From contig DXHR01000018.1 in assembly GCA_019113295.1 (NCBI GenBank), forward strand, positions 1 through 64,000: a stretch of DNA of 64,000 bases, read 5' to 3'. Under the pieces are notes generated by a model. It was not told the origin of the DNA. It saw nothing but the letters and a program-made list of their open reading frames with translations, and searched no databases. Source of the DNA: Candidatus Salinicoccus stercoripullorum (GTDB lineage Bacteria > Bacillota > Bacilli > Staphylococcales > Salinicoccaceae). A program made the position numbers and the translations under genes. Position 1 is the first letter of the stretch; every line of letters starts with the position of its first letter. Positions 20,789 to 52,470 of this stretch are shown here, in pieces.

Positions 20789-20820
20789 GATCAAATCGGC
20801 CCTTTTTAGGCATATATAGG
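20789..20820 (+). promoter_or_regulatory. NERD-family upstream block, copy 1
   Basis: ATCAAATCGGC, then CCTTTTTAGG and CATATATA, ending 36 bp before the NERD gene start. The same block with the same internal spacing precedes the three other family members (33917-33950, 38929-38961, 52049-52080). CATATATA may supply a -10, but no standard -35 is present, so a specific activator or operator is possible. Confidence 0.7.
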
Positions 20821-20856
20821 GTGAAGGGAGTTTTATCATGAATTTTGGAGGCAGAT

Positions 20857-21897
20857 ATGTTCATTACTGAGAGGAACAAATCAAAGCGGCATGTGTACTT
20901 TGAAACTTTGTCCGGGCGTGCGGAACTTGACCGGAAGGAGGCGGCGGATCTCGCACGGTATCGCTCGGGATATTCGGGCGAGTGTGAATATGATGCGGTG
21001 CTTGATGCAGTCGGGCATGACAACCTTTTCGTTTTCCGGGATATATGGATGCAGGCCGGCGGCGGTGAAGTCCAGTTCGATGCGCTGATCGTGGTGGATA
21101 ATGTTTTGATTGCGAATGAGATCAAAAATTACAGCGGCAATTATTCGTATGAAAATGGTGTGTGGAGGGTGCGCGGCCAGCAGATTTCAGAGGATCCGGT
21201 CAGTCAGCTCAGCCGCGCTGCCGGAAAACTTGTGAAACTCCGCAACGAATCAGGGTTCCAGTTCGATATTGAAAAGGAGATCGTCTTCATCAATCCGTAC
21301 TTCATTTTCGGCGGTGATGGCGGTATGGGCGCTTCTGGAGGCGGGTCCAGGCAGTTCGTCATGCGGAACCGGCTGAAACAGTACTTCCGCAGCCTCGGCA
21401 ACCATACATCCGGCCGCTCCGCGAAAGTCCTGGCCGAAGAGATTTCGGGGCGCATCATTGCAGACCCCTATCCGGTTCCGGAGACTGATTACGGTCGGCT
21501 TAGGCCGGGTGCGAACTGCTTTAAGTGCGGAAGTTTCGATGTTGAGTTGAAACGGTTTGTGTCCGTGTGTCGCAGGTGCAGCTATGCCGAGACCGTCGAA
21601 AGGCTGATCGTCCGCACTGTGGTCGATTTCGCAGTGTTGTTTCCTGACGGGGACGTGACTATGAGAAAGATATACAACTTTTTAGATCAACAGATAGACA
21701 CCCAGAAAATACAGCGGTGGATGAGCCGATATTTCCAGGTTGTGAGAAACAGTTCAAAAAGTCACTATGAAATCAGAGTTAAAGACCTGCGCAAAACCCT
21801 AGTGTCCGGCGGCTATCGTTCAAATTACGAACATGATCGTGCGTTCATATTCGAAAACCACCCCAGAAGGCATAAATTGAATCCGCACTACGTGTAG
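20857..21897 (+). CDS. NERD-domain nuclease-like protein with zinc ribbon, copy 1
   Basis: 346 residues. Residues ~35-150 form a NERD domain, a relative of PD-(D/E)xK nucleases: GYSGECEYDAVLD, FVFRDIWMQ, QFDALIVVDNVLIANEIKNY, with D75, E88 and K90 in catalytic positions, and SEDPVSQLSRAAGKL. A zinc ribbon follows (C221, C224, C238, C241). The C-terminal ~90 residues are helical and basic (VTMRKIYNFLDQQIDTQKIQ), possibly DNA-binding. ATG 20857 sits behind GGAGGCAGAT. Paralogues lie at 32921-33904 and 51027-52016, with a broken one at 38261-38911. A long hairpin array starts 41 bp after the stop codon. The cellular role is unknown. Confidence 0.85.
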   Translation: MFITERNKSKRHVYFETLSGRAELDRKEAADLARYRSGYSGECEYDAVLDAVGHDNLFVFRDIWMQAGGGEVQFDALIVVDNVLIANEIKNYSGNYSYENGVWRVRGQQISEDPVSQLSRAAGKLVKLRNESGFQFDIEKEIVFINPYFIFGGDGGMGASGGGSRQFVMRNRLKQYFRSLGNHTSGRSAKVLAEEISGRIIADPYPVPETDYGRLRPGANCFKCGSFDVELKRFVSVCRRCSYAETVERLIVRTVVDFAVLFPDGDVTMRKIYNFLDQQIDTQKIQRWMSRYFQVVRNSSKSHYEIRVKDLRKTLVSGGYRSNYEHDRAFIFENHPRRHKLNPHYV

Positions 21898-21937
21898 GCG
21901 GTGATTATTTCCCTTCGCAACTCAACGATCTGATTTC

Positions 21938-22600
21938 GTTAAGGCGAGAGACGGGGGAACGCCTTAATGAAAATGAATCATTGATGTGTAAATGCCGTTA
22001 CACATCACCGGAATGGAAACGTTAATGTGAGGCAGAAGGGCTCACCTCATCGAATAAAACACGTTAAGGTGAGATCGCGTTCTTACCTCGTCGTTCATAA
22101 ATCATTGATGTGAGACAGGAGGGCTCACCTCATCGCAATTAAAACGTTAATGTGAGATCGCGTTCTTACCTCGTCGTTCATAAATCATTGATGTGAGGCA
22201 GGGGGGCTCACATCAACGAATAAAACGCGTTAATGTGAGACCGTGTTCTTACCTCGTCGTTCATAAATCATTGATGTGAGGCAGGCAGGCTCACCTCAAC
22301 GAATAAAACACGTTAAGGTGAGAGCGCGTTCTTACCTCGTCGTTCATAAATCATTGATGTGAGGCAGGGGGGCTCACCTCAACGAATAAAACGCGTTAAG
22401 GTGAGAGCGCGTTCTTACCTCGTCGTTCATAAATCATTAATGTGAGACAGGGGGGCTCACCTCATCGAATAAAACGCGTTAAGGTGAGCCCGCGTTCTTA
22501 CCTCGTCGTTCATAAATCATTGATGTGAGACAGGCAGGCTCACATCATCGAATAAAACGCGTTAAGGTGAGCCTGCTTTTTATTCCCTCTCCCGCGCCGC
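21938..22600. repeat. Tandem hairpin array, 16 monomers of alternating 41/42 bp (83-bp dimer)
   Basis: Monomer starts (GTTAAKG or ATTGATG) fall at 21938, 21980, 22021, 22063, 22104, 22146, 22187, 22229, 22270, 22312, 22353, 22395, 22436, 22478, 22519 and 22561, alternating 42 and 41 bp, so the exact repeat is an 83-bp dimer. Each monomer holds a stem-loop. The stems vary but keep pairing: TTAAGGCG/CGCCTTAA in the first, TGATGTGTAA/TTACACATCA in the second, TGATGTGAG/CTCACATCA later. It fills the gap between the NERD copy 1 gene and a convergent gene. No ORF, spacer diversity or cas gene is present. Confidence 0.95.
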
Positions 22601-22604
22601 CCAA

Positions 22605-22632
22605 CATAAAAAAACACCCGCGCGGGGTGTCT
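22605..22632 (-). terminator. Terminator of metallophosphoesterase-like gene
   Basis: On the minus strand ACACCC-CGC-GCGGGTGT is followed by TTTTTTT, directly after the stop codon at 22632. Confidence 0.75.
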
Positions 22633-23540
22633 TACAGATGATAGTGCACCAGATCGAGGAGGTTGTAGTCTTCGCTGAGCTGCGAGACTTCCTGGTCGAT
22701 GCGGGAAACGGAGTGGCCGAGATATTCGTATGTGGTGGTGCGGGTCTTGAAATTCAGTGAGATATGCATCACCTGGCTGTCGTGGTGATGATGGTACATC
22801 GGCACGCGGCCGTCTTCGGGCACGTTGAATGTTTCGTATTTGGAGGCTGTGATCCGCGGACTCAGAACGGCGCCGTCTCCGATCTCACCATCCGTATCGC
22901 CCCCGTCCGATTCCTGCTCGGGGCTGCCGGTGATGAGCATGCCGACGCCTTCCATGTCCTGGAGGACGGCGGCCGTTTCCCGGTCCCAGTCGGAGATGCA
23001 GACGATGACGTAGTCGGGGTCGACGGAATCGTATATATAGCGCAGCCAGCGCTTCACCGAGCTGCCGAGGCGCGAGATGTGCAGCGTCGGATTCCGCTCA
23101 CCTGCCTCGGGGATGAATTCCCCGCCGTAGCCGGAGACGACCACGAGCTTCATGCCGTTGATCGAAAACACCTGGTACGGCTCGCCGAAGAACGGCTCTT
23201 TCGTCATCGGATGGGCGACGTTGCAGTTCATCCACGGGAAATTCGAAAAGCTCAGCGCCCGGCGCAGCTTCGAGACGTTCGACAGGTCCTGGTGGTTGAA
23301 GACGCCGAAATCGTACTGCATGTAGTTCATGCACGTGATCGCCGGATTGCGCGGCTTGGAATAATCATGGTCGATGCCCATCGAGCCGCCGAGGTCCGAC
23401 AGCAGGATGTGCGTGTTCTCCTCAAGCGACAGACCGCGCCTGTACCTGGACACCTTCGACAGGCTGACCCCGCCGCGCGCGCCGAGAGACCGGTTCAGAT
23501 GCTGGGTGATGATGAGACTGATGCTGAAAAACTCCTGCAT
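22632..23540 (-). CDS. Degenerate 5'-nucleotidase-like metallophosphoesterase
   Basis: 302 residues. The layout follows the 5'-nucleotidase metallophosphoesterase domain: a first strand SISLIITQHLNRSLG where active members have an IxHTNDxHG motif, LLSDLGGSMGIDHD in place of the D-A-G-D motif, MNYMQYDFGVFNHQDLSN in place of MNxxGYDAxxxGNHExD, and a final MYHHHHDSQVMHISL. Several metal ligands (the first D-x-H, the N-H-E) are changed or shifted, so normal phosphatase activity is doubtful. There is no signal peptide. I take ATG 23540, with AAGGAAGGGG before it, over an upstream TTG. Confidence 0.6.
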   Translation of the reverse strand: MQEFFSISLIITQHLNRSLGARGGVSLSKVSRYRRGLSLEENTHILLSDLGGSMGIDHDYSKPRNPAITCMNYMQYDFGVFNHQDLSNVSKLRRALSFSNFPWMNCNVAHPMTKEPFFGEPYQVFSINGMKLVVVSGYGGEFIPEAGERNPTLHISRLGSSVKRWLRYIYDSVDPDYVIVCISDWDRETAAVLQDMEGVGMLITGSPEQESDGGDTDGEIGDGAVLSPRITASKYETFNVPEDGRVPMYHHHHDSQVMHISLNFKTRTTTYEYLGHSVSRIDQEVSQLSEDYNLLDLVHYHL

Positions 23541-23617
23541 GGAATTCCCCTTCCTTTCCAAAAATTTACCGGTTCAGACGAAATTCAAATTCAGACCGGC
23601 CGTGGCTATAAAAACCC

Positions 23618-24973
23618 CTACCCGATCAACAGGCGCTCTTTCGGGAAGCGGTACGGCAGCTCGTGCTGGCGGCCGCCGATGCTGAACAGGAACGAAACGA
23701 ATCCGATGCGCCCGATGAACATGAACATCATGATGATGATCTTGCTCGGGGCGCTGAGATCATCCGTGATCCCCGTCGACAGACCGCATGTGCCGAATGC
23801 GCTGGTCACTTCGAATATGATGTCGATCAGATCGAAGCGGCTGTCCTCGAGCACGGTGATCGACACGATGCCGGAAAACACCAGCACGACGGCAAGCATT
23901 ATGACGGCGAATGCCCGGTGCAGGTCTTCACGCGCGATTTCGCGGTTGAAGATGTTCACCCGGTCGCGTCCGCGGCTGAATGCGATGAGGAACAGTATGA
24001 CGAGCGCGAGTGTCGTCGTGCGGATGCCGCCGCCTGCTGAACTCGGGCTCGCGCCGATGAACATGAGTCCGCTCATGACAACCTGTGTGCCGTCGGCGAA
24101 CTCGGCGGGGTCGACCGTCGTGAGTCCCCCGCTCCTGGTGGTCGAGGACGCAAAGAAGCTGTTCGAGAGCGTCTTGAACCACGCGTCTTCGCTGAAATAG
24201 TTCTGCGATTCCATGACGAATATGAAGAACGTGCCGACTGCGAGCAGAAGTCCGTACGTCGACGTCGTCACTTTGGTGAACAGCGAGAAGCGGAAATTCT
24301 TCTGACGCCGGCCCAGGTAGTCCCTGATTTCAAGCAGCACCGGAAAGCCGATGGCGCCGAGCATGATCTGCAGCATGACCACAAACTGCAGGAAATAGCT
24401 TTCCGTATAGTCAAGCAGAGAGTTGCCGAACAGGTCCATCCCCGCGTTCGTCGTCGCCGACACGGACAGGAAGATCCCCGTCATGAGCGAATGGACGATG
24501 CCGCCGCCCTGTGCCATGAAATAGATGACGTATATGAATGCGCCGGTGGTTTCTATTACTATCAGAGTCCTGAAGATCTCGACGACGAGCCGGACGACGC
24601 CGGACAGCTTGGTCTGGTTGTTGTCCACCATGATCTGCATGCGCTCGCGCAGCCCGATGCGGAACCCGAAGAACACCCAGATGAGTGTCCCGAGGGCCAT
24701 GATGCCGATGCCGCCGAGGTTCATGATCAGCATGATCATGATATAGCCGCCTGTGTTGAATGTCTCCGCGATCCCCACCGGCGTAAGGCCGGTGACGGAC
24801 AGCGCCGAGGCGGCGACGAATGTCACATCTATCAGCTGGATCTCCCTGTCGCCGCGGTGGAACAGAGGAAAGCTGAGCAGCACTGTCGCAGCGGTCAGTG
24901 CCAGCAGATAGTAGACGAATATCCAGCGCTGCGGACTCATTTTGTGTAAAAAGTCTTTCAGCCATCTAAGCAT
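23618..24973 (-). CDS. ktrB: Trk/Ktr-type potassium transporter membrane subunit
   Basis: 451 residues of the TrkH/KtrB superfamily: four M1-P-M2 repeats with filter regions ALSVTGLTPVG, TNAGMDLFGNS, TTRSGGLTTVDPAEF and TSAFGTCGLSTGI, each with the conserved Gly. Together with a cytoplasmic KtrA-type RCK subunit, which is not in this window, it imports K+ in exchange for the Na+ gradient. The ATG at 24973 is preceded by AAGGTG. Its length is normal for KtrB. KtrB and KtrD cannot be separated by eye. Confidence 0.85.
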   Translation of the reverse strand: MLRWLKDFLHKMSPQRWIFVYYLLALTAATVLLSFPLFHRGDREIQLIDVTFVAASALSVTGLTPVGIAETFNTGGYIMIMLIMNLGGIGIMALGTLIWVFFGFRIGLRERMQIMVDNNQTKLSGVVRLVVEIFRTLIVIETTGAFIYVIYFMAQGGGIVHSLMTGIFLSVSATTNAGMDLFGNSLLDYTESYFLQFVVMLQIMLGAIGFPVLLEIRDYLGRRQKNFRFSLFTKVTTSTYGLLLAVGTFFIFVMESQNYFSEDAWFKTLSNSFFASSTTRSGGLTTVDPAEFADGTQVVMSGLMFIGASPSSAGGGIRTTTLALVILFLIAFSRGRDRVNIFNREIAREDLHRAFAVIMLAVVLVFSGIVSITVLEDSRFDLIDIIFEVTSAFGTCGLSTGITDDLSAPSKIIIMMFMFIGRIGFVSFLFSIGGRQHELPYRFPKERLLIG

Positions 24974-25105
24974 CGATGCACCTTCTTTCAATTACTACCA
25001 GTATACAAAAAATCATCTCAAATGACATCCCGGTTTTTTGTCGGCACCCGGACATCCCGCCGCCTTCGTCCATACCCGTTTTCAGACGGAAATAAGACTT
25101 TCATC

Positions 25106-25141
25106 CCAAAAGAAAAAGCCGGCCCATGCGGCCGGCGGAAA
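25106..25141 (-). terminator. Terminator of htrA-like gene
   Basis: GCCGGCC-CATGC-GGCCGGC stem with a T-run on the minus strand (AAAAGAAAAAG on the plus strand), just after the protease stop codon. Confidence 0.8.
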
Positions 25142-25143
25142 GG

Positions 25144-26922
25144 CTACTCCAGGGTGACTGTCGTCTCCTGGCGCTCGCCATTTCTGTAGAATTCGATTGT
25201 CATCTCCTCGCCCTGCTCTTTTTCATAGTACAGGTACTGGCGCAGTTCGAGCATGTTCGGGATCGGCTCGCCGTCGAGTGATACGATTACATCGTACTGC
25301 TTCAGTCCGGCGTCTGAGGCCGGTGTGCCTTCCTGCACATTGCTGACGATGACGCCTTCTGTGACGTCTTCAGGCAGGTTCATCTCGCTGGTCAATATTT
25401 CGGTCGGCACGGTGTACAGGTCCTGCAGCTGGATGCCGAGGTACGGGCGTGTGACTTCCCCGTTCTCCTCGAGCTGTGTCACGATTTCCTTGACTTCGTT
25501 TGCCGGTATGGCGAATCCGATGCCTTCGACGGTCGGCATGCTGATCTTCATGGAGTTGATGCCGATCAGATTGCCGGATGCGTTGACGAGTGCTCCGCCG
25601 GAGTTTCCGGGATTGATGGCTGCATCGGTCTGGATGACGTTGGACTCCCAGTCGTAGTTGCCGTCGCCGTCGATGTCAACGGGCACGCTGCGGTCGAGGC
25701 CGGAGACGATGCCGCGGGACACGGAGCCCGAGAATGCCTCCCCGAGCGGTGAACCGATGGCGATCGCTGTCTCGCCGACGAGCAGCTCGTCGCTGTCTGC
25801 GAATTCGATGGCACTGTCGATTTCCCCGCGGTCGACTTCGAGTACGGCGAGGTCCGTCCAGAGATCCGTGCCGACAAGGGAAGCTGAGAGCTGTTCGCCG
25901 GACTCTAGATTGATCTGGATCTCCTCCGCACCTTCGACGACGTGGTTGTTCGTGACGATGTATGCCTTGTCATCCGTCAATTTGTAGATGACGCCGGAGC
26001 CGGTGCCCGCTTCCTCGGGTTCCGCTTCCGGGGTTTCTGCCGTACCCGGCATGAATGATTCCGCTTTCTGAAGGTTGATGACGGACACTACGGATTTCTT
26101 GGCTTTCTGGATGGCTGCGGTCGTATCGGTGATCCCTTCTGCGGAATTGCCGCTGTCTTCCTCGAGCTGCTGTTTGATGTCATCGAGCTCGTTGCGGGAA
26201 TCTTCCGGTACAGACTCCTGATCCGATTCGACCGCCGTCTGTTCGCCTTCCTGGATACCGGTTTCCCCATCATTTCCGAAGAAGTTGAAAAGGAGGAGCA
26301 CGGCCAGTGCGCCGATCGCACCCATGATGAGGGGCAGGAGCCATAAGAGGCAGCCTTTGCGGCGTCCGCCGCCGGAACCGCGCCCGCCGTCTGCGGGCGG
26401 ACCGCCGCGGCTGTCATCCGGTGTATCCGGACCGATGTTGTCGCCGCCCCGGTTGCCCGCCGGAATCACGCCGACGCCGCCTGCGGGCGTCGAACGGTCG
26501 CTGTAGCCGCCCTCGCCGGGGTGATAGTCCTGAGCGGGATCGGCTTCTTCCTTCTGTTCCTGCGCCGGCTGGTTCGGCGTCGGTGTCGGCGTTGCGTTTT
26601 CCGCCGGGTCCGTCCCGGTGTCGCGGCCGGAATCTTCATCCGGCGCCGGTGTGGGATTCTGATTCGGGTTCAGGTCCGGGTCGGTGTGGGACCCGGGCGG
26701 GCCGACTGTGCCGGGCCCTTTTTCCCTGTATGCTTCCCTCCGGGCTTCGGGACCGTTCTCCAATTCACGTGTACGCTCGGCCTCCTGTTGGCGCCCGGCA
26801 TGCTGCCTGCCTGAGTCATCAGGCGCGAATTCGCGCCTGTTTTCACTGTCTTCTGATGAAAAGACTCTGCGTTTGCGACGGTATTGTTCTCTCGGAATGA
26901 TATGTTTCTCTCCATTGTCCAA
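25144..26922 (-). CDS. htrA: HtrA/DegP-like membrane-anchored serine protease
   Basis: 592 residues. A long hydrophilic cytoplasmic region (1-189) rich in Pro, Asp, Gly and Thr is followed by one membrane helix (190-214), an extracellular trypsin-like domain with the triad H327 (TNNHVVEG), D357 (WTDLAVL) and S441 (NPGNSGGAL), and a C-terminal PDZ domain (about 485-590, YLGIQLQDLY, ASDAGLKQYDVIVSLDGEPI). HtrA proteases degrade or refold misfolded envelope proteins. The start is TTG 26922, preceded by AGGAGGCG. The long N-terminus resembles the staphylococcal HtrA1-type extension. Confidence 0.92.
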   Translation of the reverse strand: MDNGEKHIIPREQYRRKRRVFSSEDSENRREFAPDDSGRQHAGRQQEAERTRELENGPEARREAYREKGPGTVGPPGSHTDPDLNPNQNPTPAPDEDSGRDTGTDPAENATPTPTPNQPAQEQKEEADPAQDYHPGEGGYSDRSTPAGGVGVIPAGNRGGDNIGPDTPDDSRGGPPADGGRGSGGGRRKGCLLWLLPLIMGAIGALAVLLLFNFFGNDGETGIQEGEQTAVESDQESVPEDSRNELDDIKQQLEEDSGNSAEGITDTTAAIQKAKKSVVSVINLQKAESFMPGTAETPEAEPEEAGTGSGVIYKLTDDKAYIVTNNHVVEGAEEIQINLESGEQLSASLVGTDLWTDLAVLEVDRGEIDSAIEFADSDELLVGETAIAIGSPLGEAFSGSVSRGIVSGLDRSVPVDIDGDGNYDWESNVIQTDAAINPGNSGGALVNASGNLIGINSMKISMPTVEGIGFAIPANEVKEIVTQLEENGEVTRPYLGIQLQDLYTVPTEILTSEMNLPEDVTEGVIVSNVQEGTPASDAGLKQYDVIVSLDGEPIPNMLELRQYLYYEKEQGEEMTIEFYRNGERQETTVTLE

Positions 26923-26983
26923 GTGCGACGCCTCCTGTCAAAAATGAACTTAAATCATATTCTTAAATCATATTATAGAGATT

Positions 26984-27772: not shown

Positions 27773-27805
27773 GAAAATTCCTCCTAAAAGTTGTTTGACA
27801 AAACA

Positions 27806-27955
27806 AAAAGAGACCCCGATCCGGGATCTGTGCACGGCACAGATCCGGTCAAGGTCTCACGATACAATGTGATGCATTGCTCAATGCACCGGGATTTCTC
27901 CGTAGTGACGATGCATTGATGGGTCGCCCCATTCGTTACTCCCCTTTTCCGCTTC
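27806..27955 (-). ncRNA. yybP-ykoY manganese riboswitch
   Basis: In the leader of the TerC gene the minus strand reads AAAGGGGAGTAACG, CGTCACTACGGAG and GTGAGACCTTGACCGG, the conserved blocks of the yybP-ykoY aptamer. The last block pairs with GGGGTCTC before a TTTTT run (27806-27860), forming a terminator that Mn2+ binding would disrupt by holding the GAGACCTT strand. The position ahead of a TerC gene is the classic one. Confidence 0.87.
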
Positions 27956-28048
27956 GGCGGCCCGGTTTCCGGGCTGCCGGGAAAGGCAGCATTCTTTTCA
28001 TAAGTCATCATTAAATATAAAGCATCCATCCGGAAAAGTAAAGTGGTT

Positions 28049-32791: not shown

Positions 32792-32796
32792 GATGC

Positions 32797-32905
32797 GGGT
32801 TTGGCGGGCGGCGCCATGCCCGCATGGAGCGTTATCCGGGTTTGGCGGGCGGCGCCATGCCCACGTGGGGCGTTATCCGGGTTTGGCGCACAGAACGATG
32901 CCCAT
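32797..32905. repeat. 41-bp hairpin array beside NERD copy 2
   Basis: GGGTTTGGCG recurs at 32797, 32838 and 32879, an exact 41-bp period (about 2.6 units). The unit core GCGGGC-N8-GCCCGC forms a hairpin. The array lies between the ltaA terminator and the stop codon of NERD copy 2. Confidence 0.88.
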
Positions 32906-32920
32906 ATGCGCCGGCGGAGG

Positions 32921-33904
32921 CTACCAGATGAAATTACGGTCATTCTCGTATTTCGTCTCATAGCCGTTCTCTTTCAGCAGGGAATCCAGATTCAAATTTT
33001 TCGCTGTATAGTAGGTCGATCTGCCCGAGCCGTGCATATTACAATACTTCGCAAGCGTCCGGCGCATTGTGCGCTCGTTGATCTGAATACCGATGAACCG
33101 GGTTATCCTGGGCCTGGTCATTGGAATATCGTGAAACAGTACAGAAAAATCAATGATGCCCCGGACAATCATCCGCTCGGCCGTCTCCCCGTAGCCGCAT
33201 CTGAGACACTCCGCCTTATACTTGCCGATGCCGAGGTCAAACGCGCCGCATGCATGGCAATAGTTCCCTATCCGCACCCGTTTGAAATCCGTCTTCGGCA
33301 ACGACATAGGATTGCGGATGAAAAAACGGCGGAGCGCCCGGGCGTTCGCGTGGGCGGCGGGGCCGGCTGAGAGTCTCGCGAGGTCACTAAAATGTTCCCG
33401 CAGCCGGGGCCGCCCGACGATGAACCGCCGGTTCTCTTCCGAATTGAATTCGAGATTCATATCAGGATTTACAAATACTACCTTTTTCCGCACATCGAAA
33501 CGGTGCGGCATCATGCCGCTGAGCCGCACAAGCTTTCCGGCGGTGCGCGACACCTGGGCGAGCGGGTCTTCGTAGCCCGGCCGGCCGCTGACTGTCCACT
33601 TGCCGTCCGCATACTTGTAGTCCCCGCTGAAATTCTTCACTTCATCAACGGCAACGACCCCGTCGGCAATGACCAGGCTGTCGGTCTGGATCACGGCTTC
33701 ATCCACTTTCATCCAGACATCGCGGTAGATTAATAAACTCCCGTGGCCGGCGGCATCGAACAGCCTGTCATACTCGCACTCGCCCGCATGCCCGGCGGAG
33801 AGCGCCGCAAGCTTCCGCTGCTCTTTATTCGACAGTACGGAACGGTTTGACAGTGCCTGATAATAGATCAGTTCCTGCGGTTTCTGCCGCATGTTCAGAA
33901 ACAT
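32921..33904 (-). CDS. NERD-domain nuclease-like protein with zinc ribbon, copy 2
   Basis: 327 residues, co-linear with copies 1 and 4. NERD domain with D75, E88 and K90 (IQTDSLVIADGVVAVDEVKN), EDPLAQVSRTAGKLVRLSG, then a zinc ribbon (C216, C219, C233, C236) and a basic helical C-terminus ending in a segment with GRSTYYTAKNLNLDSLLKEN. Its N-terminus (MFLNMRQKPQELIYYQAL) is shared with copy 4. It is GC-rich like the surrounding genes, in contrast to AT-rich copy 4. The 41-bp array begins 16 bp after the stop. Confidence 0.85.
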   Translation of the reverse strand: MFLNMRQKPQELIYYQALSNRSVLSNKEQRKLAALSAGHAGECEYDRLFDAAGHGSLLIYRDVWMKVDEAVIQTDSLVIADGVVAVDEVKNFSGDYKYADGKWTVSGRPGYEDPLAQVSRTAGKLVRLSGMMPHRFDVRKKVVFVNPDMNLEFNSEENRRFIVGRPRLREHFSDLARLSAGPAAHANARALRRFFIRNPMSLPKTDFKRVRIGNYCHACGAFDLGIGKYKAECLRCGYGETAERMIVRGIIDFSVLFHDIPMTRPRITRFIGIQINERTMRRTLAKYCNMHGSGRSTYYTAKNLNLDSLLKENGYETKYENDRNFIW

Positions 33905-38040: not shown

Positions 38041-38246
38041 CTGGCGGCCCTCCTGATGCCCCGGTAATCCATTTGCCGGGCATGGCGGCTCTCCTGATGC
38101 CCGGGTAATCCATTTGCCGGGCATGGCAGCTCTCCTGATGCCCGGGTAATCCGTTTGCCGGGCTTGGCAGCTCTCCTGATGCCCGGGTAATCCGTTTGCC
38201 GGGCATGGTGGCTCTCCTGATGCCCGGGTAATCCGTTTGCCGGGCA
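38041..38246. repeat. 41-bp hairpin array beside NERD copy 3
   Basis: TCCTGATGCCC recurs at 38051, 38092, 38133, 38174 and 38215, an exact 41-bp period, five units. Each unit holds the perfect stem TGCCCGG/CCGGGCA. It lies between the tatC terminator and the remnant of NERD copy 3. Confidence 0.95.
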
Positions 38247-38260
38247 TTAATCGCTATCAA

Positions 38261-38911
38261 TTAGGAAGTACTTCTGCTTCTGCCTGTTTTGTCACAATAT
38301 CTGTTGTGCAGCCTCCGCACCGTCCTCTCATTCAGCACACAACCGGTAAAATGATGCATTCTATCCTTTGTCACAGGTGTATTATGAAACAACACAGAGT
38401 GATCAATGTCCGCACGCGCAAACATATGATTCAGTTTTTCTCTCCCGCCGCAATTTCTGCAGGTCATTTTAAACTTCCCATACTCCACTTCAAAACTCCC
38501 GCAGCTGCAGCAATAATTTCCAACCCGCACACGTGGGGATCGGTCTCAGGCAACGGCATGGGATCGGCGATGAAGTACTTCCTGAGGGCGGCGTTTTCGC
38601 GGGCGGACCAGCCGCTTTGGTACAGATGACTTCCGCTGTAGTTCTTGATCCCGTTCACAACAATCACCCCGCCGGTCACAATCAGGCTGTCTGCCTGCAG
38701 TACGGCCTTGTCCACTTTCATCCAGACATCCCTGTATATCAATAAACGCCCGTGGCCCGCGACATCGAACAGCCTGTCATATTCCGCCTCACCGGCGAAA
38801 CCGCGCGCCAGGTTCGACATGCGCCACTGCTCGTCGCGGGTGAGTGCGCTCCGACGGACCAGGCTTCATAGTAACGGAGTGCCGCTGATTTTCCCCGTTG
38901 TTCAAAAACAT
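38261..38911 (-). pseudogene. Decayed NERD/zinc-ribbon gene, copy 3
   Basis: Pieces of the family are recognisable in different frames. The start MFLNNGENQ is at 38911. A frame change leads into GFAGEAEYDRLFDVAGHGRL. After the NERD core (LQADSLIVTGGVIVVNGIKN) about 90 residues are deleted, joining NYSGSHLYQSGW to SARENAALRKYFIADPMPLP. A second frameshift leads to the zinc ribbon (NYCCSCGSFEVEYG, CRNCGG), and the product stops after GRSRSTS, some 25 residues short. The catalytic Glu is replaced by Gly in VVNGIKN. The upstream block and downstream array remain. Confidence 0.88.
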
Positions 38912-43823: not shown

Positions 43824-43828
43824 GACAC

Positions 43829-43893: not shown

Positions 43894-44060
43894 AAAAACG
43901 GAGGCCGCCAAACGACAATGCCGGCCGCGGTAACAAAAACGGCGGCCGCCAAACGACAATGCCGGCCACGGTAACAAAAACGGAGGCCGCCAGACGGCAA
44001 TGCCGGCCGCGGTAACAAAAACGGAGGCCGCCAGACGACAATGCCGGCCGCCGCAGTTTA
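43894..44060. repeat. 41-bp hairpin array without adjacent NERD gene
   Basis: AAAAACGGNGGCCGCC recurs at 43894, 43935, 43976 and 44017, an exact 41-bp period, about four units. GCGGCC and GGCCGC within each unit pair. It lies between the preceding terminator and the end of the convergent M23 peptidase gene. Confidence 0.93.
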
Positions 44061-44063
44061 TCC

Positions 44064-44888: not shown

Positions 44889-44950
44889 AACGATCCCTCC
44901 CGTAAATTATGGTCCATCTGATATATCGGAAGAGATACCGGAAAAAGTCA

Positions 44951-45000: not shown

Positions 45001-45017
45001 TACACAACGGAGGTGCC

Positions 45018-46537: not shown

Positions 46538-48099
46538 CACATTTTCTTACAATTGTGCTGCGCGATGTCCGCTTCCGCATACTCATGTGGATCGTCGGCA
46601 TCTCGGCACTGACACTCGTCGTCCCGCCCGCTTTCGAAGGGCTCTACAGTGACCCGGCTGAACGTGAGCTGCTGAAGGAGACACTCAGCAACCCGGCAAT
46701 GGTTGCGATCGTCGGTCCGGTGCCGGAAAGTACCTACACCATCGCTGTCATGTTCGCCCATGAGATGATCGTATTCATGGCGGTCGTCCACGGCCTCTTC
46801 GGCATCATGATCGCAAACGCCGTAAGCCGGAAGATGGAGGACAACGGACTGCTGGAATATGTGAGCAGCACAGGCATCACACGCGGGAACATCTTCCGGG
46901 CACAGCTTCTGATCGGCTTCATAATGAACATCACGCTTGGTGCAGTCATCTTCGCAGGGCTCAGTGTAATGAACATCGAATCCTTCGGGACCGGGGGCAA
47001 TCTTCTCTATGCGCTCGGCACCACTTTGTTCGGCATACTGTTCTACACCTTCACCCTTGTGCTCGCACAGCTGCTGCCCTCGTCCGACTGGTCATTCGGC
47101 GCCGCCCTGTCGATCCTGCTGCTCCTGTATGCCGGGCGGGCGGTGACGGATGTGATCAACACAGACTATTCGGCAGCGTTCCCGTACCACTGGCTGTCCC
47201 GCATGGAACCTTTCGGCACGAATGACTACATGTGGCTGCTGCCATTTGCGGTCATACTGCTGTTCATTTGGCTTGCATGGGCGCTGTTTTCGAAACGTGA
47301 TCTTGATGATGCCTATATCGCACTCGATTTCAAAAGGAAGACACGCCGTATCGGCACCTATCCCCGTCTTCAGCTGACCGGCATGAAAGTGCTGATCATC
47401 AGCTGGCTTGCCGGCATGCTGATGATCGGGCTGTCCTACGGGGCAATCTTCGGGGACCTGGATACGTTCATCGGTGAAAACGAACTGCTGGCACAGGCAA
47501 TGGAGGATGCGTCCGGCACAGATCCGATCCTCCAGTTCATCAGCACTTTGATGATGATCACCGTAATCGTCGGTGTCATCCCCGCACTGATGGTATCTGC
47601 ACGCATACTGCGCGAAGAGAAATCAGGACGTCTGGAAATGCTCGCAAGCGCCGATATCAGCCGCATCTCCATGCTCATCACCCATGGAGTGCTCGGAGCC
47701 GTCACCGGCGCCCTTGGACTGGCCTTCTCCGTATTCGGCATGTACGGGGCGAGCATCGGCGTGGAGGGCATCGGCCTGACTCTCGGCGACTATATGCTGA
47801 CCGCCCTGAACTACACGCCCGCCGTCATCTTTTTTGCCGGACTGTCAATGCTCCTGATCGGCATATCCAGGAAACTGCATACGCTGATCTGGATCTATTT
47901 CATCTATGCATTCTTCGTCAACTACCTCGGACTCGTCATCGGGCTCGACGATGAGTGGCGAATGGCCACCCCGTTCCATTATCTCGCCGAAATGCCGGCT
48001 GAGGAAATAGACTGGACGGCATGGACCATTATCACCCTGATCGGCGCCGCACTCGGCGTCACCGGCGCCCTTCTATTCAGAAAAAGGGATATCGGCTGA
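46534..48099 (+). CDS. ABC exporter permease (12 TM, drug-exporter type)
   Basis: 521 residues with about twelve membrane helices in two halves, like the TetR-linked permeases annotated as exporters of polyketide antibiotics. Recognisable parts are MIVFMAVVHGLFGIMIANAV, SRKMEDNGLLEYVSSTGITR and, in the second half, EEKSGRLEMLASADISRISM, where each E-x-G-x-x-E/L motif marks the cytoplasmic coupling loop. It completes the TetR-ABC operon and ends at a strong terminator. The substrate is unknown. Confidence 0.88.
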   Translation: MTHFLTIVLRDVRFRILMWIVGISALTLVVPPAFEGLYSDPAERELLKETLSNPAMVAIVGPVPESTYTIAVMFAHEMIVFMAVVHGLFGIMIANAVSRKMEDNGLLEYVSSTGITRGNIFRAQLLIGFIMNITLGAVIFAGLSVMNIESFGTGGNLLYALGTTLFGILFYTFTLVLAQLLPSSDWSFGAALSILLLLYAGRAVTDVINTDYSAAFPYHWLSRMEPFGTNDYMWLLPFAVILLFIWLAWALFSKRDLDDAYIALDFKRKTRRIGTYPRLQLTGMKVLIISWLAGMLMIGLSYGAIFGDLDTFIGENELLAQAMEDASGTDPILQFISTLMMITVIVGVIPALMVSARILREEKSGRLEMLASADISRISMLITHGVLGAVTGALGLAFSVFGMYGASIGVEGIGLTLGDYMLTALNYTPAVIFFAGLSMLLIGISRKLHTLIWIYFIYAFFVNYLGLVIGLDDEWRMATPFHYLAEMPAEEIDWTAWTIITLIGAALGVTGALLFRKRDIG

Positions 48100-48102
48100 A
48101 TA

Positions 48103-48142
48103 AAAATTCCGCAGACCTTCATGCAGGCTGCGGAATTTTTCC
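48103..48142. terminator. Bidirectional terminator
   Basis: AAAAATTCCGCAG pairs with CTGCGGAATTTTT, serving the ABC permease (+) and the AI-2E family gene (-). Confidence 0.9.
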
Positions 48143-48144
48143 GG

Positions 48145-49248
48145 TTATTCGGAAGGGGGCTCCCCGGCTTCGGCAAACATCGTTTTTCCGATGTTGCTCC
48201 TGTATCTCCAGATGTTCTGGATGACCGTCTTGATGACGGCATATGTCGGAATGGCGATCAGCATGCCGATGAAGCCGGCGATGTTGCCGGCCGCAAGGAC
48301 GACCGTGATGACCGTGAGCGGGTGCAGTTTCAGTGTCTGCCCCATGACGTTCGGCGTGACGAGGTTGCTTTCGATCTGCTGCGCGATGAGTGTGATGAGC
48401 GATACCCACACAAACATGATCGGATCCTGGATGAGCGCAAGGAGTGCCGCCGGCAGGAATGCGACCCATGGTCCGATGAACGGGATGAGGTTCATGAACA
48501 ATGCGAAGATCGCGAGCAGCAGTGCATAATCGAGGCCGATGATTGCGTATCCGATGTAGAGGATGATGCACAGTATGAAACTCACAAGCATCTGCCCCTG
48601 GATGAATGCACGCAGTGTGCTGTCGATGTCACTCATCAGTTCGGAAAGGAACTGTTTGAATGTTCCCTTGAACGGTGAAGTCATTGCCGGAATGAATTTC
48701 TCATGGTCCTTCAGCAGGAAGAAGTAGAAGAACGGTATGAGGATCAGCGTAACCAGCACACTCACAGTACCCGACACGATCGTGATGGCATTGCCCAGCA
48801 GATTGGAAATCACCTGGGATCCCTGGTCAAGCGCGTCCTGGACATAGGACTGCGGATCGAACGGCAGCCTGTCCCGCTGGGAGAGCAGGAAGTTGAATAA
48901 TTCCTGGATTTCCCTCTGGATCATCGGCGCCCTTGATACGAGGTTCTGTACCTGGGTCGTCACCATCGGCACGATGATCATCGACAGGAGCGTGATGACG
49001 AGCAGTATGATGATGAAGATCGCAAGGATGCTTGTGACCCGGCCGGCTTTCCGTTTCTCCAGGAACCGCTGTATGGGCTCTGTAATATAGTAGAGCAGTC
49101 CGCCGATCAGAAGCGGGATGAATACTGTTGCTATGATTGTAAAGAACGGCTGGAAAATCACCTGCACCCTGATCACCAGCATGATGATCAGCAGGGTGAT
49201 GATGATTGCAACGCCGGTCTGGAACCAAACTTTTCTTGTCATGCGCAT
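48145..49248 (-). CDS. AI-2E family transporter (UPF0118/PerM)
   Basis: 367 residues with about eight membrane helices. Family features are FFTIIATVFIPLLIGGLLYY, LLKDHEKFIPAMTSPFKGTF, ALLLAIFALFMNLIPFIGPW and NLVTPNVMGQTLKLHPLTVI. Members have been linked to Na+/H+ exchange or signal export; the true substrate is often unclear. The start may be ATG 49248 or the ATG 6 bp inside it, given GAAGGG just upstream. Confidence 0.9.
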   Translation of the reverse strand: MRMTRKVWFQTGVAIIITLLIIMLVIRVQVIFQPFFTIIATVFIPLLIGGLLYYITEPIQRFLEKRKAGRVTSILAIFIIILLVITLLSMIIVPMVTTQVQNLVSRAPMIQREIQELFNFLLSQRDRLPFDPQSYVQDALDQGSQVISNLLGNAITIVSGTVSVLVTLILIPFFYFFLLKDHEKFIPAMTSPFKGTFKQFLSELMSDIDSTLRAFIQGQMLVSFILCIILYIGYAIIGLDYALLLAIFALFMNLIPFIGPWVAFLPAALLALIQDPIMFVWVSLITLIAQQIESNLVTPNVMGQTLKLHPLTVITVVLAAGNIAGFIGMLIAIPTYAVIKTVIQNIWRYRSNIGKTMFAEAGEPPSE

Positions 49249-49454
49249 ATTTCCCTTCTCGTTCGATTTAAAGTTGATTACAGTGTACCATAAATTTTAT
49301 TTTTCCTTAAAGCATATACAGAATAAAAAACGCGCGGACGCATGAAAGCGCCCGCAGAAGAATGGTATCGTCTGGATATCCGGGTGGGCCGGAATGCCCG
49401 AAACAGGAAGACTGTCAGTATCCCGGCGAAGCGTTACGCAAACAATAAAAATTG

Positions 49455-49483
49455 TTTAACGATTACCCCCTTATTGGTAGAAT
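49455..49483 (+). promoter_or_regulatory. Candidate promoter of esterase gene
   Basis: TTTAAC (49455-49460), a 17-bp spacer and TAGAAT (49478-49483), just upstream of the GAGGGGG ribosome site. Confidence 0.45.
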
Positions 49484-49504
49484 TGCAATGAGGGGGTTTT
49501 ACTT

Positions 49505-50230
49505 ATGGATATGACACCAGGAAAAGTGCATACGATCGATTTCGAATCGGAGACACTGGGTGACACTTATGAAATACAATACTATCTTCCTAAAAATTTT
49601 TCCGATCTCTACAAGCACCATGTGGTGCTGACTTTCGATTCACAGGATTTCTTCAAGTACGGCCAGATCGAACGGCAGTATGAAAAACTGTGGGAGAAAG
49701 GCGAGGTCGAGCGCGCCATCATCGTCGGCGTGCCGTATCCGTCCGTCGAATGGCGGAACGATTATTTCAGCCCGAACGGCAGACATCACGATGCATTCGT
49801 ATCGTTCGTCTCACGCGAACTGATCCACTGGATCGACAACACCTTCCCGACACTTAAAGTCGGCACGTCACGCGTGCTGATGGGTGAATCCCTGGCGGGG
49901 AGCTTTGCGTTCTCGATCGCCGCAGCCTATCCGGCGACATTCTCGCAGGCAGCCGCCTTCAGTCCGTTTGTCGATGAGGACTTTATCGGCCGGTTCGAAT
50001 CACAGCCGATGCTCATGCATCTGGATCTGTATCACACGATCGGGCTCGGGGAGGACGACTTCACGACGATCTCCGGGGAGCAGGCCGATTTCCTGACACC
50101 GAACCGCAGGCTGAACGAATATCTGGAGGGCGAGCCTCTCGAATATGAGTACCGGGAACTCGACGGGGGCCACATCTGGAAGACATGGAAACCGGAACTC
50201 GACAGCATACTGAAACACTATCTGAATTAG
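49505..50230 (+). CDS. Esterase D-type alpha/beta hydrolase
   Basis: 241 residues of the esterase D/Fes-like family: YEIQYYLPKNFSDLYKHHVV, nucleophile elbow VLMGESLAGSFAFSIAAAYP (Ser in GESLAG), and HIWKTWKPEL supplying the catalytic His. There is no signal peptide. It lies 62 bp upstream of yjcG, an arrangement also seen in other Bacillales, where a yjcG-yjcH-like pair occurs. The natural ester is unknown. Confidence 0.85.
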   Translation: MDMTPGKVHTIDFESETLGDTYEIQYYLPKNFSDLYKHHVVLTFDSQDFFKYGQIERQYEKLWEKGEVERAIIVGVPYPSVEWRNDYFSPNGRHHDAFVSFVSRELIHWIDNTFPTLKVGTSRVLMGESLAGSFAFSIAAAYPATFSQAAAFSPFVDEDFIGRFESQPMLMHLDLYHTIGLGEDDFTTISGEQADFLTPNRRLNEYLEGEPLEYEYRELDGGHIWKTWKPELDSILKHYLN

Positions 50231-50292
50231 ATATTATGGATTTTTGCAAAAAGTCTGATATAATTGAATTAAAACACACGGGAGGAATCAAG

Positions 50293-50808
50293 ATGAATTT
50301 TGGGGTAGCAATGTTTCCATCCAAACAACTTCAGGACAAAGTGAACCAGTACAGAAAAAGATATGATGCACACTATGCACTCATCCCGCCGCACATCACG
50401 GTGAAAGAAAGCTTCGAGGCGGATGAGTCCGATAAAGAGAAAATCATTGAATATCTTAAAAATGTTGCCAAAAATCACAACCCTGTAGATATTGAAATCA
50501 AAAAAGTATCCAGCTTCGTTCCGAACTCTCAGGTAATCTACTTCAAAGTGGAGAAGAACGAACAGCTGTCAGCCATCCACGATGACCTCAACAAAGGGGA
50601 TTTCTATGGCGAAAACCAGCACCCGTTCGTGCCGCACTTCACCATCGCACAGGGACAGACGTCCCAGGAATATGAAGATATGTTCGGCCACCTGAGCATG
50701 ATCGGCATCGACCATTCGGAAACACTGAACAGGATCAGCCTCTGCTTCCAGCTCGAGAACGGGATGTGGGAAGTATTCGAGACATTCCGCCTCGGGACAG
50801 GCGAATGA
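50293..50808 (+). CDS. yjcG: YjcG-like 2H phosphoesterase/ligase family protein
   Basis: 171 residues with the two H-x-T/S-x motifs of the 2H superfamily, PPHITVKES and VPHFTIAQG, about 100 residues apart, matching YjcG in length. ATG 50293 follows GGAGGAATCAAG. 2H proteins act on cyclic phosphodiesters or RNA ends; YjcG's reaction is not established. Confidence 0.9.
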   Translation: MNFGVAMFPSKQLQDKVNQYRKRYDAHYALIPPHITVKESFEADESDKEKIIEYLKNVAKNHNPVDIEIKKVSSFVPNSQVIYFKVEKNEQLSAIHDDLNKGDFYGENQHPFVPHFTIAQGQTSQEYEDMFGHLSMIGIDHSETLNRISLCFQLENGMWEVFETFRLGTGE

Positions 50809-50826
50809 CTCCGATTCTTACTTGTG

Positions 50827-50863
50827 TTTAAAAACCCCTCCACGGTGTGGAGGGGTTTTTGCG
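50827..50863 (+). terminator. Terminator after yjcG
   Basis: AAAAACCCCTCCAC-GGT-GTGGAGGGGTTTTT, a strong symmetric stem. Confidence 0.92.
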
Positions 50864-50900
50864 CGGCGTGGAATGGAACGGTTGTTATATTTTGAAACGG

Positions 50901-51023
50901 CGGCCGGCAATACTGTTTGCCGGTCTCCGTTCGGGATACCGCGGCCGGCAACACCTTTTGATGGCCTCCGTTTGGGATACCGCGGCCGGCAACACTGTTT
51001 GACGGCCCCCGTTTCTAATAGAG
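50901..51023. repeat. 41-bp hairpin array at 3' side of NERD copy 4
   Basis: CGGCCGGCAA recurs at 50901, 50942 and 50983, an exact 41-bp period. GGCCGGCAA pairs with TTGCCGG-type sequence in the same unit. The units belong to the same subfamily as the array at 52146-52470 on the other side of the gene. Confidence 0.93.
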
Positions 51024-51026
51024 CTT

Positions 51027-52016
51027 CTACAGTTTAACTTTTTTGAATCTGATATCCGTCTCATATTTTGATGTATAGTTGTTATCCAGTAACAGTTTTT
51101 CCAACTCTGTGTTTTTTATCTTATAAGATGTGGATCTGCTGTCCCCACTCTTATGGCAATAGGTGTTCATCATGCGCCTTATCGTCCGCGGCTTAAGCGA
51201 ATCCATTAAAAAAGTGCCGATTTTTGAACTGGTCATCGGTTCATTCCAAAATATGAATGAATAATCCATCAATCCTCTGACAAACATTTTTTCAAGTGTT
51301 TCCTTACTGCCGCACGCTCTGCACACGGCATAGAATTTCCTCATCTCCAAACTGAAAGATCCACAGTTAAAACAATAATTCCCCAATCTGATTCTATTAA
51401 TATCGATTTCAGGCAATATCATTGGATCATCGATGAAAAATTCCTTTATTTGTTCCGACATTTCATAAGCCTGCGGCCCGGCGTACATTTTATTCAAATT
51501 TTTCATATAATGTCTCAAAGTGGACCTTTTTATAATATTCCTGTCATATCCGGGCGCAGCTTCCAGATTGAATTCCGGGTTCACAAAAATCACTTTGAAT
51601 TGCCTGCTGAAATTCTGTTGAAGAAGATAACGTAATTTCAACAGTTTATTACCGGTGCGCGAAGCCTGGGCAAGCGGATCAGCAGAAATTTGTACGTCTC
51701 TTATCATCCACCCATCATTATCAAACGAATAAAATCCACTGTAGTTTTTGATTTCATTGACTATCAATGAATTTTCAGTGATGATCAATGCATCAATCTG
51801 AAGCGTTGCATCCTCTATCTTCATCCATACATCCCTGTAGATCAACAGATTTTCATGCCCTGCCTCATCAAAAACACTGTCATATTCTCTCTCCCCTTCA
51901 TATCCTTTCCTCAAAACAGCTAACTTTCTTTCTTCTTCCTGGCTCAGCCTGCAACGTCGGTTCAATGCTTCGTAAAACTTCAATTCCTTCGGTTTCGTCC
52001 TGCTATTTAAAAACAT
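51027..52016 (-). CDS. NERD-domain nuclease-like protein with zinc ribbon, copy 4
   Basis: 329 residues. NERD core with D75, E88 and K90 (LQIDALIITENSLIVNEIKN), SADPLAQASRTGNKLLKLRY, zinc ribbon C215, C218, C232, C235 and a basic C-terminus (IRRMMNTYCHKSGDSRSTSY, IKNTELEKLLLDNNYTSKYE). Base composition is much more AT-rich than copies 1 and 2 and than its neighbours, which suggests separate or more recent arrival. 41-bp arrays of one subfamily flank it on both sides. Confidence 0.85.
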   Translation of the reverse strand: MFLNSRTKPKELKFYEALNRRCRLSQEEERKLAVLRKGYEGEREYDSVFDEAGHENLLIYRDVWMKIEDATLQIDALIITENSLIVNEIKNYSGFYSFDNDGWMIRDVQISADPLAQASRTGNKLLKLRYLLQQNFSRQFKVIFVNPEFNLEAAPGYDRNIIKRSTLRHYMKNLNKMYAGPQAYEMSEQIKEFFIDDPMILPEIDINRIRLGNYCFNCGSFSLEMRKFYAVCRACGSKETLEKMFVRGLMDYSFIFWNEPMTSSKIGTFLMDSLKPRTIRRMMNTYCHKSGDSRSTSYKIKNTELEKLLLDNNYTSKYETDIRFKKVKL

Positions 52017-52048
52017 GCATTATACCTCCTTAATAAAAAATCCTCTTA

Positions 52049-52080
52049 CTATATATATGTATAAAAACTGCCGATTTGAT
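52049..52080 (-). promoter_or_regulatory. NERD-family upstream block, copy 4
   Basis: Minus strand: ATCAAATCGGC, AGTTTTTATA, CATATATATAGT. The spacing is as in the other copies; a possible AAGGAGG ribosome site follows further downstream. Confidence 0.7.
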
Positions 52081-52145
52081 TTTTTATCAAGCAAATAATA
52101 ATGATGCTAAGTAACTTATTGTGTAAAAATACCATTTTAAATAAC

Positions 52146-52470
52146 GGAGGCCGGCAATTATGTTTGATGGTCTCCGTTCGGGATACCGCGGCCGGCAACA
52201 CCATTTGATGGCCCCCGTTCAGGATACCGCGGCCGGCAATACTGTTTGCCGGCCTCCGTTCGGGATACCGCGGCCGGCAACACCGTTTGACGGCCCCCGT
52301 TCGGGATGCCGCGGCCGGCAACACTGTTTGATGGTCTCCGTTCGGGATACCGCGGCCGGCAACACTGTTTGATGGTCTCCGTTCGGGATACCGCGGCCGG
52401 CAACACCGTTTGATGGCCCCCGTTCAGGATACCGCGGCCGGCAACACTGTTTGCCGGCCTCCGTACACCA
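52146..52470. repeat. 41-bp hairpin array at 5' side of NERD copy 4
   Basis: About eight units of exact 41-bp period, with CGGCCGGCAA at 52189, 52230 and every 41 bp after. In some units GGCCGGCAA and TTGCCGGCC pair perfectly over 9 bp; in others TTGATGGTC keeps partial pairing through G-T pairs. It ends just before the fabI terminator. Confidence 0.95.

What the first reader, a model, noticed from the sequence alone, without database searches (positions are those of the whole stretch)
20789..52470. Dispersed NERD-zinc-ribbon gene family, every copy with a 41-bp hairpin array at its 3' end
Four family members (20857-21897, 32921-33904, 38261-38911 decayed, 51027-52016) occur within 32 kb. Each is followed within 4-41 bp of its stop by a tandem array of hairpin monomers of 41 bp (41/42 bp in copy 1). 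The intact copies keep the nuclease-like residues D75, E88, K90 and a C4 zinc ribbon. Association at all four loci is unlikely by chance. It suggests one module, perhaps a protein that maintains, spreads or acts on its own repeats, by analogy with RAYT transposases and REP elements. The functional link is inference; the co-location is seen directly.
Basis: partly seen in the sequence, partly recalled or inferred. Interest (0 to 1): 0.93.

Follow-up and report, generated by a model that had tools for sequence, protein, structure and literature searches.

The report
Nuclease-like proteins with private DNA lattices
Salinicoccus and related bacteria carry families of nuclease-like proteins, most of them encoded beside their own array of mirrored DNA boxes that repeats at close to a whole number of turns of the double helix; each protein likely grips its own boxes, and protein and boxes change together between species, which would be a new kind of protein-and-repeat partnership.

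Summary
The genome has 7 family members, all with a 41/42-bp array at the 3' end. Across related genomes 118 of 140 near-complete members have an array (111 at the 3' end). Of the 118, 113 have units of only 40-43, 50-52 or 61-62 bp (4, 5 or 6 helical turns); the rest are 83 bp (three), 235 and 244 bp. A unit is a pair of inverted boxes, centres about 20 bp apart. G.T and A.C mismatches are about equal (48 to 53), so the signal points to double-stranded DNA, not RNA. The protein is a PD-(D/E)XK-like NERD domain, a zinc ribbon and a winged helix; array sequence follows the winged helix more than the NERD domain. Boxes of one window copy's type (51027-52016) occur at about 13 places. At most orthologous sites tested, S. 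sediminis and S. halodurans carry arrays of their own box type. A congener without a full-length member lacks genes and arrays at five such sites. I conclude that each protein binds its own boxes, in cis and in trans, and co-evolves with them. Binding and nuclease activity are predicted, not shown. The RAYT/REP analogy fits arrangement, not protein family. Literature searches found no earlier description.

The parts
20857..21897 (+). Copy 1: NERD-Zn ribbon-winged helix protein (P0001, 346 aa)
   Evidence: Pfam NERD E 2.5e-9; alignment A3
22025..22571 (+). Array of copy 1, 83-bp (41+42) unit, 6.6 copies
   Evidence: TRF
32921..33904 (-). Copy 2 (P0002, 327 aa)
   Evidence: Pfam NERD E 5.4e-8
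32796..32908 (-). Array of copy 2, 41 bp, 2.8 copies
   Evidence: TRF
38261..38868 (-). Copy 3, decayed (stops, pieces missing)
   Evidence: two separate matches with stops; ORF pieces
38042..38247 (-). Array of copy 3, 41 bp, 5 copies, 95% matches, kept although the gene is broken
   Evidence: TRF
51027..52016 (-). Copy 4 (P0003, 329 aa); its box type is also found dispersed
   Evidence: Pfam NERD E 9.4e-11; AF2 model mean pLDDT 93.6
50900..51014 (-). 3' array of copy 4, 41 bp
   Evidence: TRF
52162..52464 (-). 5' array of copy 4, 41 bp, 7.4 copies, unit consensus 39/41 identical to the 3' array
   Evidence: TRF
43894..44052 (.). Solo array of copy-4 box type
   Evidence: arrays at the orthologous site in S. 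sediminis and S. halodurans
60676..60962 (.). Solo array of copy-4 box type; no TRF array at the orthologous site in S. sediminis or S. halodurans
52019..52085 (-). Promoter-like element upstream of copy 4 (AAATCGGC..TATATATAG) that recurs upstream of many members
   Evidence: seen by eye; TATATA near the start in 69 of 140 members against 87 of 736 other ORFs, start positions being defined differently in the two sets

Best explanation
Each NERD-zinc-ribbon-winged-helix protein is predicted to bind, likely as dimers through its winged helix, the inverted box pairs of its own array, which repeat about every 41, 51 or 62 bp (4, 5 or 6 turns of DNA), and its nuclease-like domain likely acts on the DNA it holds. 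Shown: arrays sit beside most genes; boxes are paired in inverted orientation with centres about 20 bp apart; unit length is quantised by helical turn; array sequence follows the winged helix more than the NERD domain; one protein's box type recurs at other fixed intergenic sites and differs between species together with that protein; a congener without a full-length member lacks genes and arrays at five such sites. Inferred: dimers line up on one face of the helix to form a nucleoprotein lattice; the conserved active site nicks or cuts at or near the array, and the resulting recombination keeps units alike and lets boxes follow a fast-changing protein. I put binding at about 0.85 and nuclease action on the arrays at about 0.4.
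Against: No binding or cleavage data exist. 22 of 140 members have no array of 38 bp or more by TRF (some show two or three degenerate units by eye; shorter-period rows such as those of L150 were not counted). The window's copy 3 is a pseudogene yet keeps a 95%-matched array; the S. carnicancri copy-4 orthologue has an in-frame stop yet boxes of its type persist. Of the S. sediminis and S. halodurans sites compared, one keeps own-type boxes, one is undecided, one ties with an unrelated class, one matches another gene's class, and S. halodurans has no TRF array at the orthologues of solo 60 and 138. Single arrays can be strongly strand-biased in fold energy, in either direction, and G.T against A.C clusters somewhat within arrays (p 0.09). 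The winged helix is next to the 3' array, so linkage can mimic co-divergence in cis; among the 7 members with only a 5' array the test is inconclusive. Period class follows clade, so independent changes are few and rest on a quick tree with unsure forks.
Confidence: 0.7

Rival explanations
1. REPIN/RAYT-like selfish pair: the protein copies or moves its array around the genome, and boxes are transposition substrates.
For: Copy-4 box type at about 13 places, 9 of them on one contig; arrays absent from five placed sites of a congener without a full-length member.
Against: Linkers differ between arrays of one genome (unit consensus 24-32 of 41 identical between sites; only the two arrays of copy 4 itself reach 39). 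Three of the sites (44, 67, 95 kb) hold arrays in all three species compared. Only the NERD domain passes Pfam cut-offs.
Confidence: 0.15
2. Chromosome organiser or insulator: the protein bridges or marks intergenic sites; the nuclease fold serves binding or regulation only.
For: Arrays tend to lie between convergent genes: 17 of 26 arrays checked convergent and none divergent, against 12 and 22 of 90 background gaps (crude ORF calls, several arrays are orthologues of each other).
Against: Catalytic residues invariant or nearly so in 61 proteins. Many private classes per genome. A congener has no full-length member.
Confidence: 0.2
3. Defence nuclease held in check by its arrays: the array is a decoy or tether, and the protein attacks foreign DNA that bears boxes or that displaces it.
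For: Weak NERD-region matches to defence proteins PglW, MkoA and MADS6. NERD is named among putative CRISPR auxiliary genes in a figure legend of PMC10910872 (passage). Fast specificity change and several private classes per genome.
Against: Copy 4 has no match in plasmid or phage collections and the family none in viral contigs (one peptide pattern). Neighbours in the window are ordinary chromosomal genes: 9 of 10 checked have Pfam matches (enoyl reductase, nucleotidyl transferase, MFS, TatC, oligopeptidase F and others), none a defence family. Boxes recur in trans at fixed sites.
Confidence: 0.15
4. RNA-level module: the array is the structured 3' UTR or a small-RNA array (type III toxin-antitoxin-like).
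For: Arrays lie 3' of the gene in most members; some arrays fold much better on the sense strand (L043, the contig-17 copy, L013).
Against: Sense fold lower in only 21 of 41 arrays; G.T 48 against A.C 53; units quantised by helical turn; solo and 5' arrays.
Confidence: 0.06

Closest known systems
REPIN-RAYT / REP-TnpA(REP) systems
   Same: A chromosomal gene kept through speciation with its own palindromes near it and dispersed in intergenic space (RAYT single-copy and vertical inheritance: passage of PMC8049555).
   Different: RAYT is a tyrosine transposase; TnpA(REP) of E. coli acts on single-stranded REP with a GTAG motif (passages of PMC8266576). Here NERD + zinc ribbon + winged helix, helically phased double-stranded box pairs in tandem, up to 15 matches (some of them fragments) per genome, no sign of copying with linkers.
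Type I restriction specificity (HsdS target-recognition-domain swapping; recalled)
   Same: A conserved core with a DNA-recognition domain that is exchanged or diverges fast and sets the target.
   Different: Targets are self arrays at fixed chromosomal sites; no methyltransferase or translocase domain found in the protein.
PRDM9 and its hotspots (recalled)
   Same: Fast co-change of a DNA-binding domain and its genomic sites.
   Different: Bacterial; sites are arrays that persist and are re-coded in place rather than eroded.
SmdA, a NERD-domain protein of Staphylococcus aureus (PMC9040797, passages read)
   Same: Share the NERD domain by annotation.
   Different: SmdA is a membrane cell-morphology factor that lacks several of the most conserved NERD residues (passage); the passages do not mention arrays.
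Type III toxin-antitoxin (ToxIN; recalled)
   Same: Nuclease-like gene next to a short tandem array.
   Different: There the array is upstream and works as RNA (recalled); here mostly downstream, with no RNA-strand signal.

Membership tests
NERD domain proteins (Pfam PF08378) | Match above the gathering score | tested here: met
   3 of 3 intact window copies; 5 of 5 distant members
PD-(D/E)XK nucleases | Conserved catalytic motif QxD...(E/D)xK | tested here: met
   Q73, D75, K90 in 61 of 61; residue 88 E in 56, D in 5. A plain regular expression finds the motif in 128 of 140
PD-(D/E)XK nucleases | Fold | tested here: inconclusive
PD-(D/E)XK nucleases | DNA cleavage | not testable with these tools
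   No assay
RAYT/REP | HUH/Y1 tyrosine transposase domain | tested here: not met
   Only NERD passes the Pfam gathering score in 8 members scanned
RAYT/REP | Many dispersed extragenic palindromes of one type | tested here: met
   36 boxes at about 13 places for copy 4, one of them a single box; all six TRF solo arrays in 552 kb match copy 4 best
RAYT/REP | GTAG-type tag at the foot of the hairpin | not tested
   -
Type III toxin-antitoxin | Array upstream of the toxin gene | tested here: not met
   3' array in 111, 5' array in 12 of 140
Type III toxin-antitoxin | Array acts as RNA | tested here: inconclusive
   No sense-strand preference; no expression data
CRISPR array | Unique spacers between identical repeats | tested here: not met
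   In the window the whole unit, linkers included, repeats at 84-95% matches
BREX PglW / MADS6 | Full-length family match above cut-off | tested here: not met
   Best 23.1 bits (MADS6, cut-off 460) and 12.3 bits (PglW, cut-off 990)

The most novel reading that the evidence does not exclude
A bacterial counterpart of PRDM9-type evolution: an array-bound nuclease re-codes its own binding lattices in place, in cis and at fixed intergenic sites in trans, by nick-driven recombination, so that every lineage carries several private, fast-changing protein-lattice codes, each measured in whole turns of the double helix.
Probability: 0.3. Interest if true: 0.97.

Novelty: categorically new. Interest (0 to 1): 0.92.

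Why it matters
[quoted passage not shown] It offers many natural protein-DNA specificity pairs, some with matched chimeras, and a tractable bacterial case of rapid co-evolution between a DNA-binding domain and its genomic sites. The lattice rule (4, 5 or 6 turns, largely fixed by clade) makes direct, cheap predictions.

Tried and rejected
RNA structure as the conserved feature: tested by strand-specific folding and by G.T against A.C counts, no support. Simple chance or assembly artefact: rejected by 140 members in many genomes and by controls (G007 400 kb, G037 160 kb, G076 140 kb hold no array of 40-43, 50-52 or 61-62 bp; among periods scanned they hold one each of 60, 48, 63 and 54 bp). Mobile elements: copy 4 has no match in plasmids or phages, and the family alignment none in viral contigs. 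Clustering of arrays round the terminus: the dif-like site (motif recalled) is on other contigs in own, G009 and G003. Conserved upstream element as a strict pattern: the pattern was too strict and found only copy 1. Orthologous arrays sharing linkers: identities between orthologous units (20-28 of 41) are not clearly above non-orthologous ones (19-25). 5' arrays as a linkage-free test: too few. Foldseek gave no hit at E 0.001 or better, so the domain folds rest on the AF2 model, VIA-align 2 and motifs. A sequence search of solved structures gave only weak hits. In the first motif run the shuffles had fewer starts than the real data; repeated with equal starts and 12 shuffles, same outcome. 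Literature: searched for this pair or its parts, for RAYT; none described it; the library lacks most subscription journals.
Full report
OBSERVATION. The four members in the window and their arrays are real. The whole genome (2,288,309 bases, 37 contigs) has seven members, counting the decayed one; the other three are on contigs 30, 8 and 17, and all seven have a 41/42-bp array on the 3' side, each with its own sequence.

BREADTH. A scan of named genomes gave 40 loci in Salinicoccus, Jeotgalicoccus and Lacicoccus. Whole-genome searches found a match in 33 of 33 genomes of the own family (in G007 only a weak C-terminal match) and in 64 of 157 genomes of the order, up to 14 matches per genome in another family; a later search listed 15 in one genome. 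Some matches are fragments. After removing members with the same 300-bp core there were 141 near-complete members (a few nearly identical), 140 with at least 250 bp of 3' sequence. Of these 111 have a TRF array of period 38 or more starting from -150 to +200 bp of the stop, 12 have one 5' of the gene, 118 have either. In the flanks TRF listed 8 further rows of period 38 or more in 562,236 bp. The 140 are not a random sample: best matches per genome plus places I chose from the lists. Arrays were found in three families by the tool's numbering (f1, f2, f4).

CONTROLS. G007, of the same genus but with no full-length member, has no array of the three period classes in 400,000 bp. G037 and G076, of the same order and without a match, have none in 160,000 and 140,000 bp. 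These controls hold four other repeats, of 60, 48, 63 and 54 bp. In Salinicoccus stretches 9 of 10 family ORFs and 32 of 726 other ORFs have an array at the 3' end; by their coordinates the 32 share an array with a family gene or flank a solo array.

ARRAY ANATOMY. Each unit tends to be palindromic about two centres, so boxes alternate in orientation. Mean best palindromy is 0.546, against 0.466 (largest of 200 means 0.485) for shuffled units. A motif search that did not impose geometry found a shared weak box, roughly C-R-W-Y-G-K-C-N-N-G-N-N-A, scoring 550.8 against 403.0-422.3 in 12 shuffles with equal starts; the forward and reverse boxes lie 16-17 bp apart (start to start) in 31 of 49 loci. 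Eight loci were left out of that search (six with mixed periods, L095, L015); 5 of the 49 are arrays without an intact gene of their own or second arrays. Of the 118 arrays, 113 have units of 75 bp or less: 79 are 40-43, 23 are 50-52 and 11 are 61-62 bp long, none in between; the other five are 83 (three), 235 and 244 bp. The means are 10.30, 10.23 and 10.29 bp per turn for 4, 5 and 6 turns. The distance inside a box pair centres on 19-21 bp in all classes but scatters (11-29 in the 41-bp class, 17-24 and 17-26 in the others). The extra turns therefore go into the spacer between pairs. On a quick tree of 116 proteins the class needs at least 5 changes; strongly supported branches alone force 2 each for the 4-turn and 5-turn classes. 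Helical quantisation is expected for proteins lined up on one face of double-stranded DNA and not for RNA hairpins. In line with this, box arms show 48 G.T and 53 A.C mismatches on the sense strand, and the sense strand folds better in 21 of 41 arrays. Single arrays can be strongly biased either way, and within-array clustering is suggestive (p 0.09).

SPECIFICITY IN CIS. In 50 loci, array similarity depends mainly on winged-helix identity (standardised beta 0.39; NERD 0.19; ribbon 0.05); the partial Mantel test given NERD has r 0.32, p 0.0005, and NERD given the winged helix r 0.15, p 0.0005. In 122 arrays (118 plus four added by hand), pairs with NERD identity of 0.8 or more match above the 99th background percentile in 13 of 13 cases at winged-helix identity of 0.85 or more, 7 of 9 at 0.70-0.85, 3 of 5 at 0.60-0.70, 5 of 20 at 0.50-0.60 and 0 of 3 below 0.5. 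At NERD 0.60-0.70 the counts are 6 of 6 (winged helix 0.70-0.85), 2 of 14, 1 of 15 and 10 of 63 (pairs are not independent; fractions converted to counts). Syntenic orthologues show the break: copy 1 and its S. sediminis orthologue are 92% identical in NERD and 57% in the winged helix, with different arrays; the S. sediminis and S. carnicancri ones are 92% identical in the winged helix and have alike arrays. L037 is L033 in the NERD half (91-99%) but nearer L042 in the winged helix (70%; 50% to L033), and its degenerate boxes resemble L042's by eye. Linkage could produce part of this in cis.

SPECIFICITY IN TRANS. The box type of copy 4 (CGGNGGCCGNCAA) occurs 36 times in the own genome (reversed-pattern control 4), at about 13 places, 9 of them on contig 12, one place with a single box. 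In S. sediminis and S. carnicancri it occurs 5 and 7 times (controls 5 and 0). The type of their own copy-4 orthologues (CSGTGTCCGSSA) occurs 49 and 37 times there (controls 6 and 8) and 8 times in the own genome (control 5). The sites are orthologous: flanks of the own solo arrays at 44, 67, 95 and 138 kb align at 86-94% to flanks of S. sediminis arrays, and those at 44, 67, 88 and 95 kb to flanks of S. halodurans arrays (76-86%). In a similarity table 6 of 6 own, 4 of 6 S. sediminis and 4 of 5 S. halodurans solo arrays match their own species' copy-4 array best or equal best. Exceptions: S. sediminis 441 kb keeps own-type boxes, 414 kb was undecided, S. halodurans 118 kb ties with an unrelated class, 221 kb matches another gene's class; S. 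halodurans has no TRF array at the orthologues of solo 60 and 138. Arrays in one genome differ in their linkers (24-32 of 41 identical between sites), which fits selected binding sites better than fresh copies of one element.

JOINT ABSENCE. In G007 the sequences that flank copies 1, 3 and 4 and solo arrays 67 and 95 lie only 307, 154, 209, 167 and 233 bp apart, without room for the gene and without a TRF array; copy 2's site holds other sequence (1590 bp), solo 44's gap of 414 bp looks coding, and the remaining sites could not be placed in the stretch held.

PLACEMENT. By crude ORF calls, 17 of 26 arrays lie between convergent genes and none between divergent ones, against 12 and 22 of 90 background gaps of 100 bp or more on contig 12. 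Some calls at the window copies are doubtful and many arrays are orthologues of each other, so this is indicative only. Nine of ten neighbouring genes checked in the window belong to ordinary metabolic, transport, protease or sigma-factor families, one has no Pfam match.

MECHANISM. Binding of each protein to its own boxes follows from the anatomy and from co-variation in cis and trans; I hold it at about 0.85. What the nuclease-like domain does is inference. Conserved catalytic residues, homogeneous units and joint absence favour action on the arrays (about 0.4). A tethered defence nuclease, a chromosome-organising role and selfish spread remain open.

KNOWN KINDS. The nearest analogue is REPIN/RAYT (abstract starts in the listing, passages). 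The protein fails that family's defining domain. Literature searches found no report of NERD proteins with phased arrays; the library is incomplete.

Noticed in passing
L102 1108-2051 (G000 contig 17, about 81-82 kb): A relative split in two ORFs beside an inositol-monophosphatase-like gene (by eye): a NERD-like part without a Pfam match that seems to lack the catalytic residues, and a separate 99-aa ribbon/winged-helix-like ORF. C-terminal-only matches of this kind appear in several Salinicoccus genomes, G007 included. TRF found no 41-bp array nearby.
   Followed up: partly
window 38042-38868: Copy 3 is a pseudogene but its array is 95% uniform, so arrays outlive their gene for some time or are served by another copy.
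   Followed up: no
upstream of many members, e.g. window 52019-52085: A shared promoter-like element (AAATCGGC, a short spacer, TATATATAG) upstream of even distant paralogues suggests one common regulator of all copies. TATATA near the start: 69 of 140 members against 87 of 736 other ORFs, with differently defined starts.
   Followed up: partly
G005 contig 7, 96.9-126 kb (L247-L249): In S. halodurans the orthologous sites carry arrays of a further box type (CGAYGKCCANATG-like, by eye), which matches its own copy-4 orthologue.
   Followed up: partly
L086, L091, L092, L226, L227, L230, L211: Seven members have the array only 5' of the gene.
   Followed up: partly
L096, L097 (G028, G029): Distant members have 235-244 bp duplications with degenerate inverted boxes (by eye) instead of short-unit arrays, perhaps an older or eroded form.
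   Followed up: no
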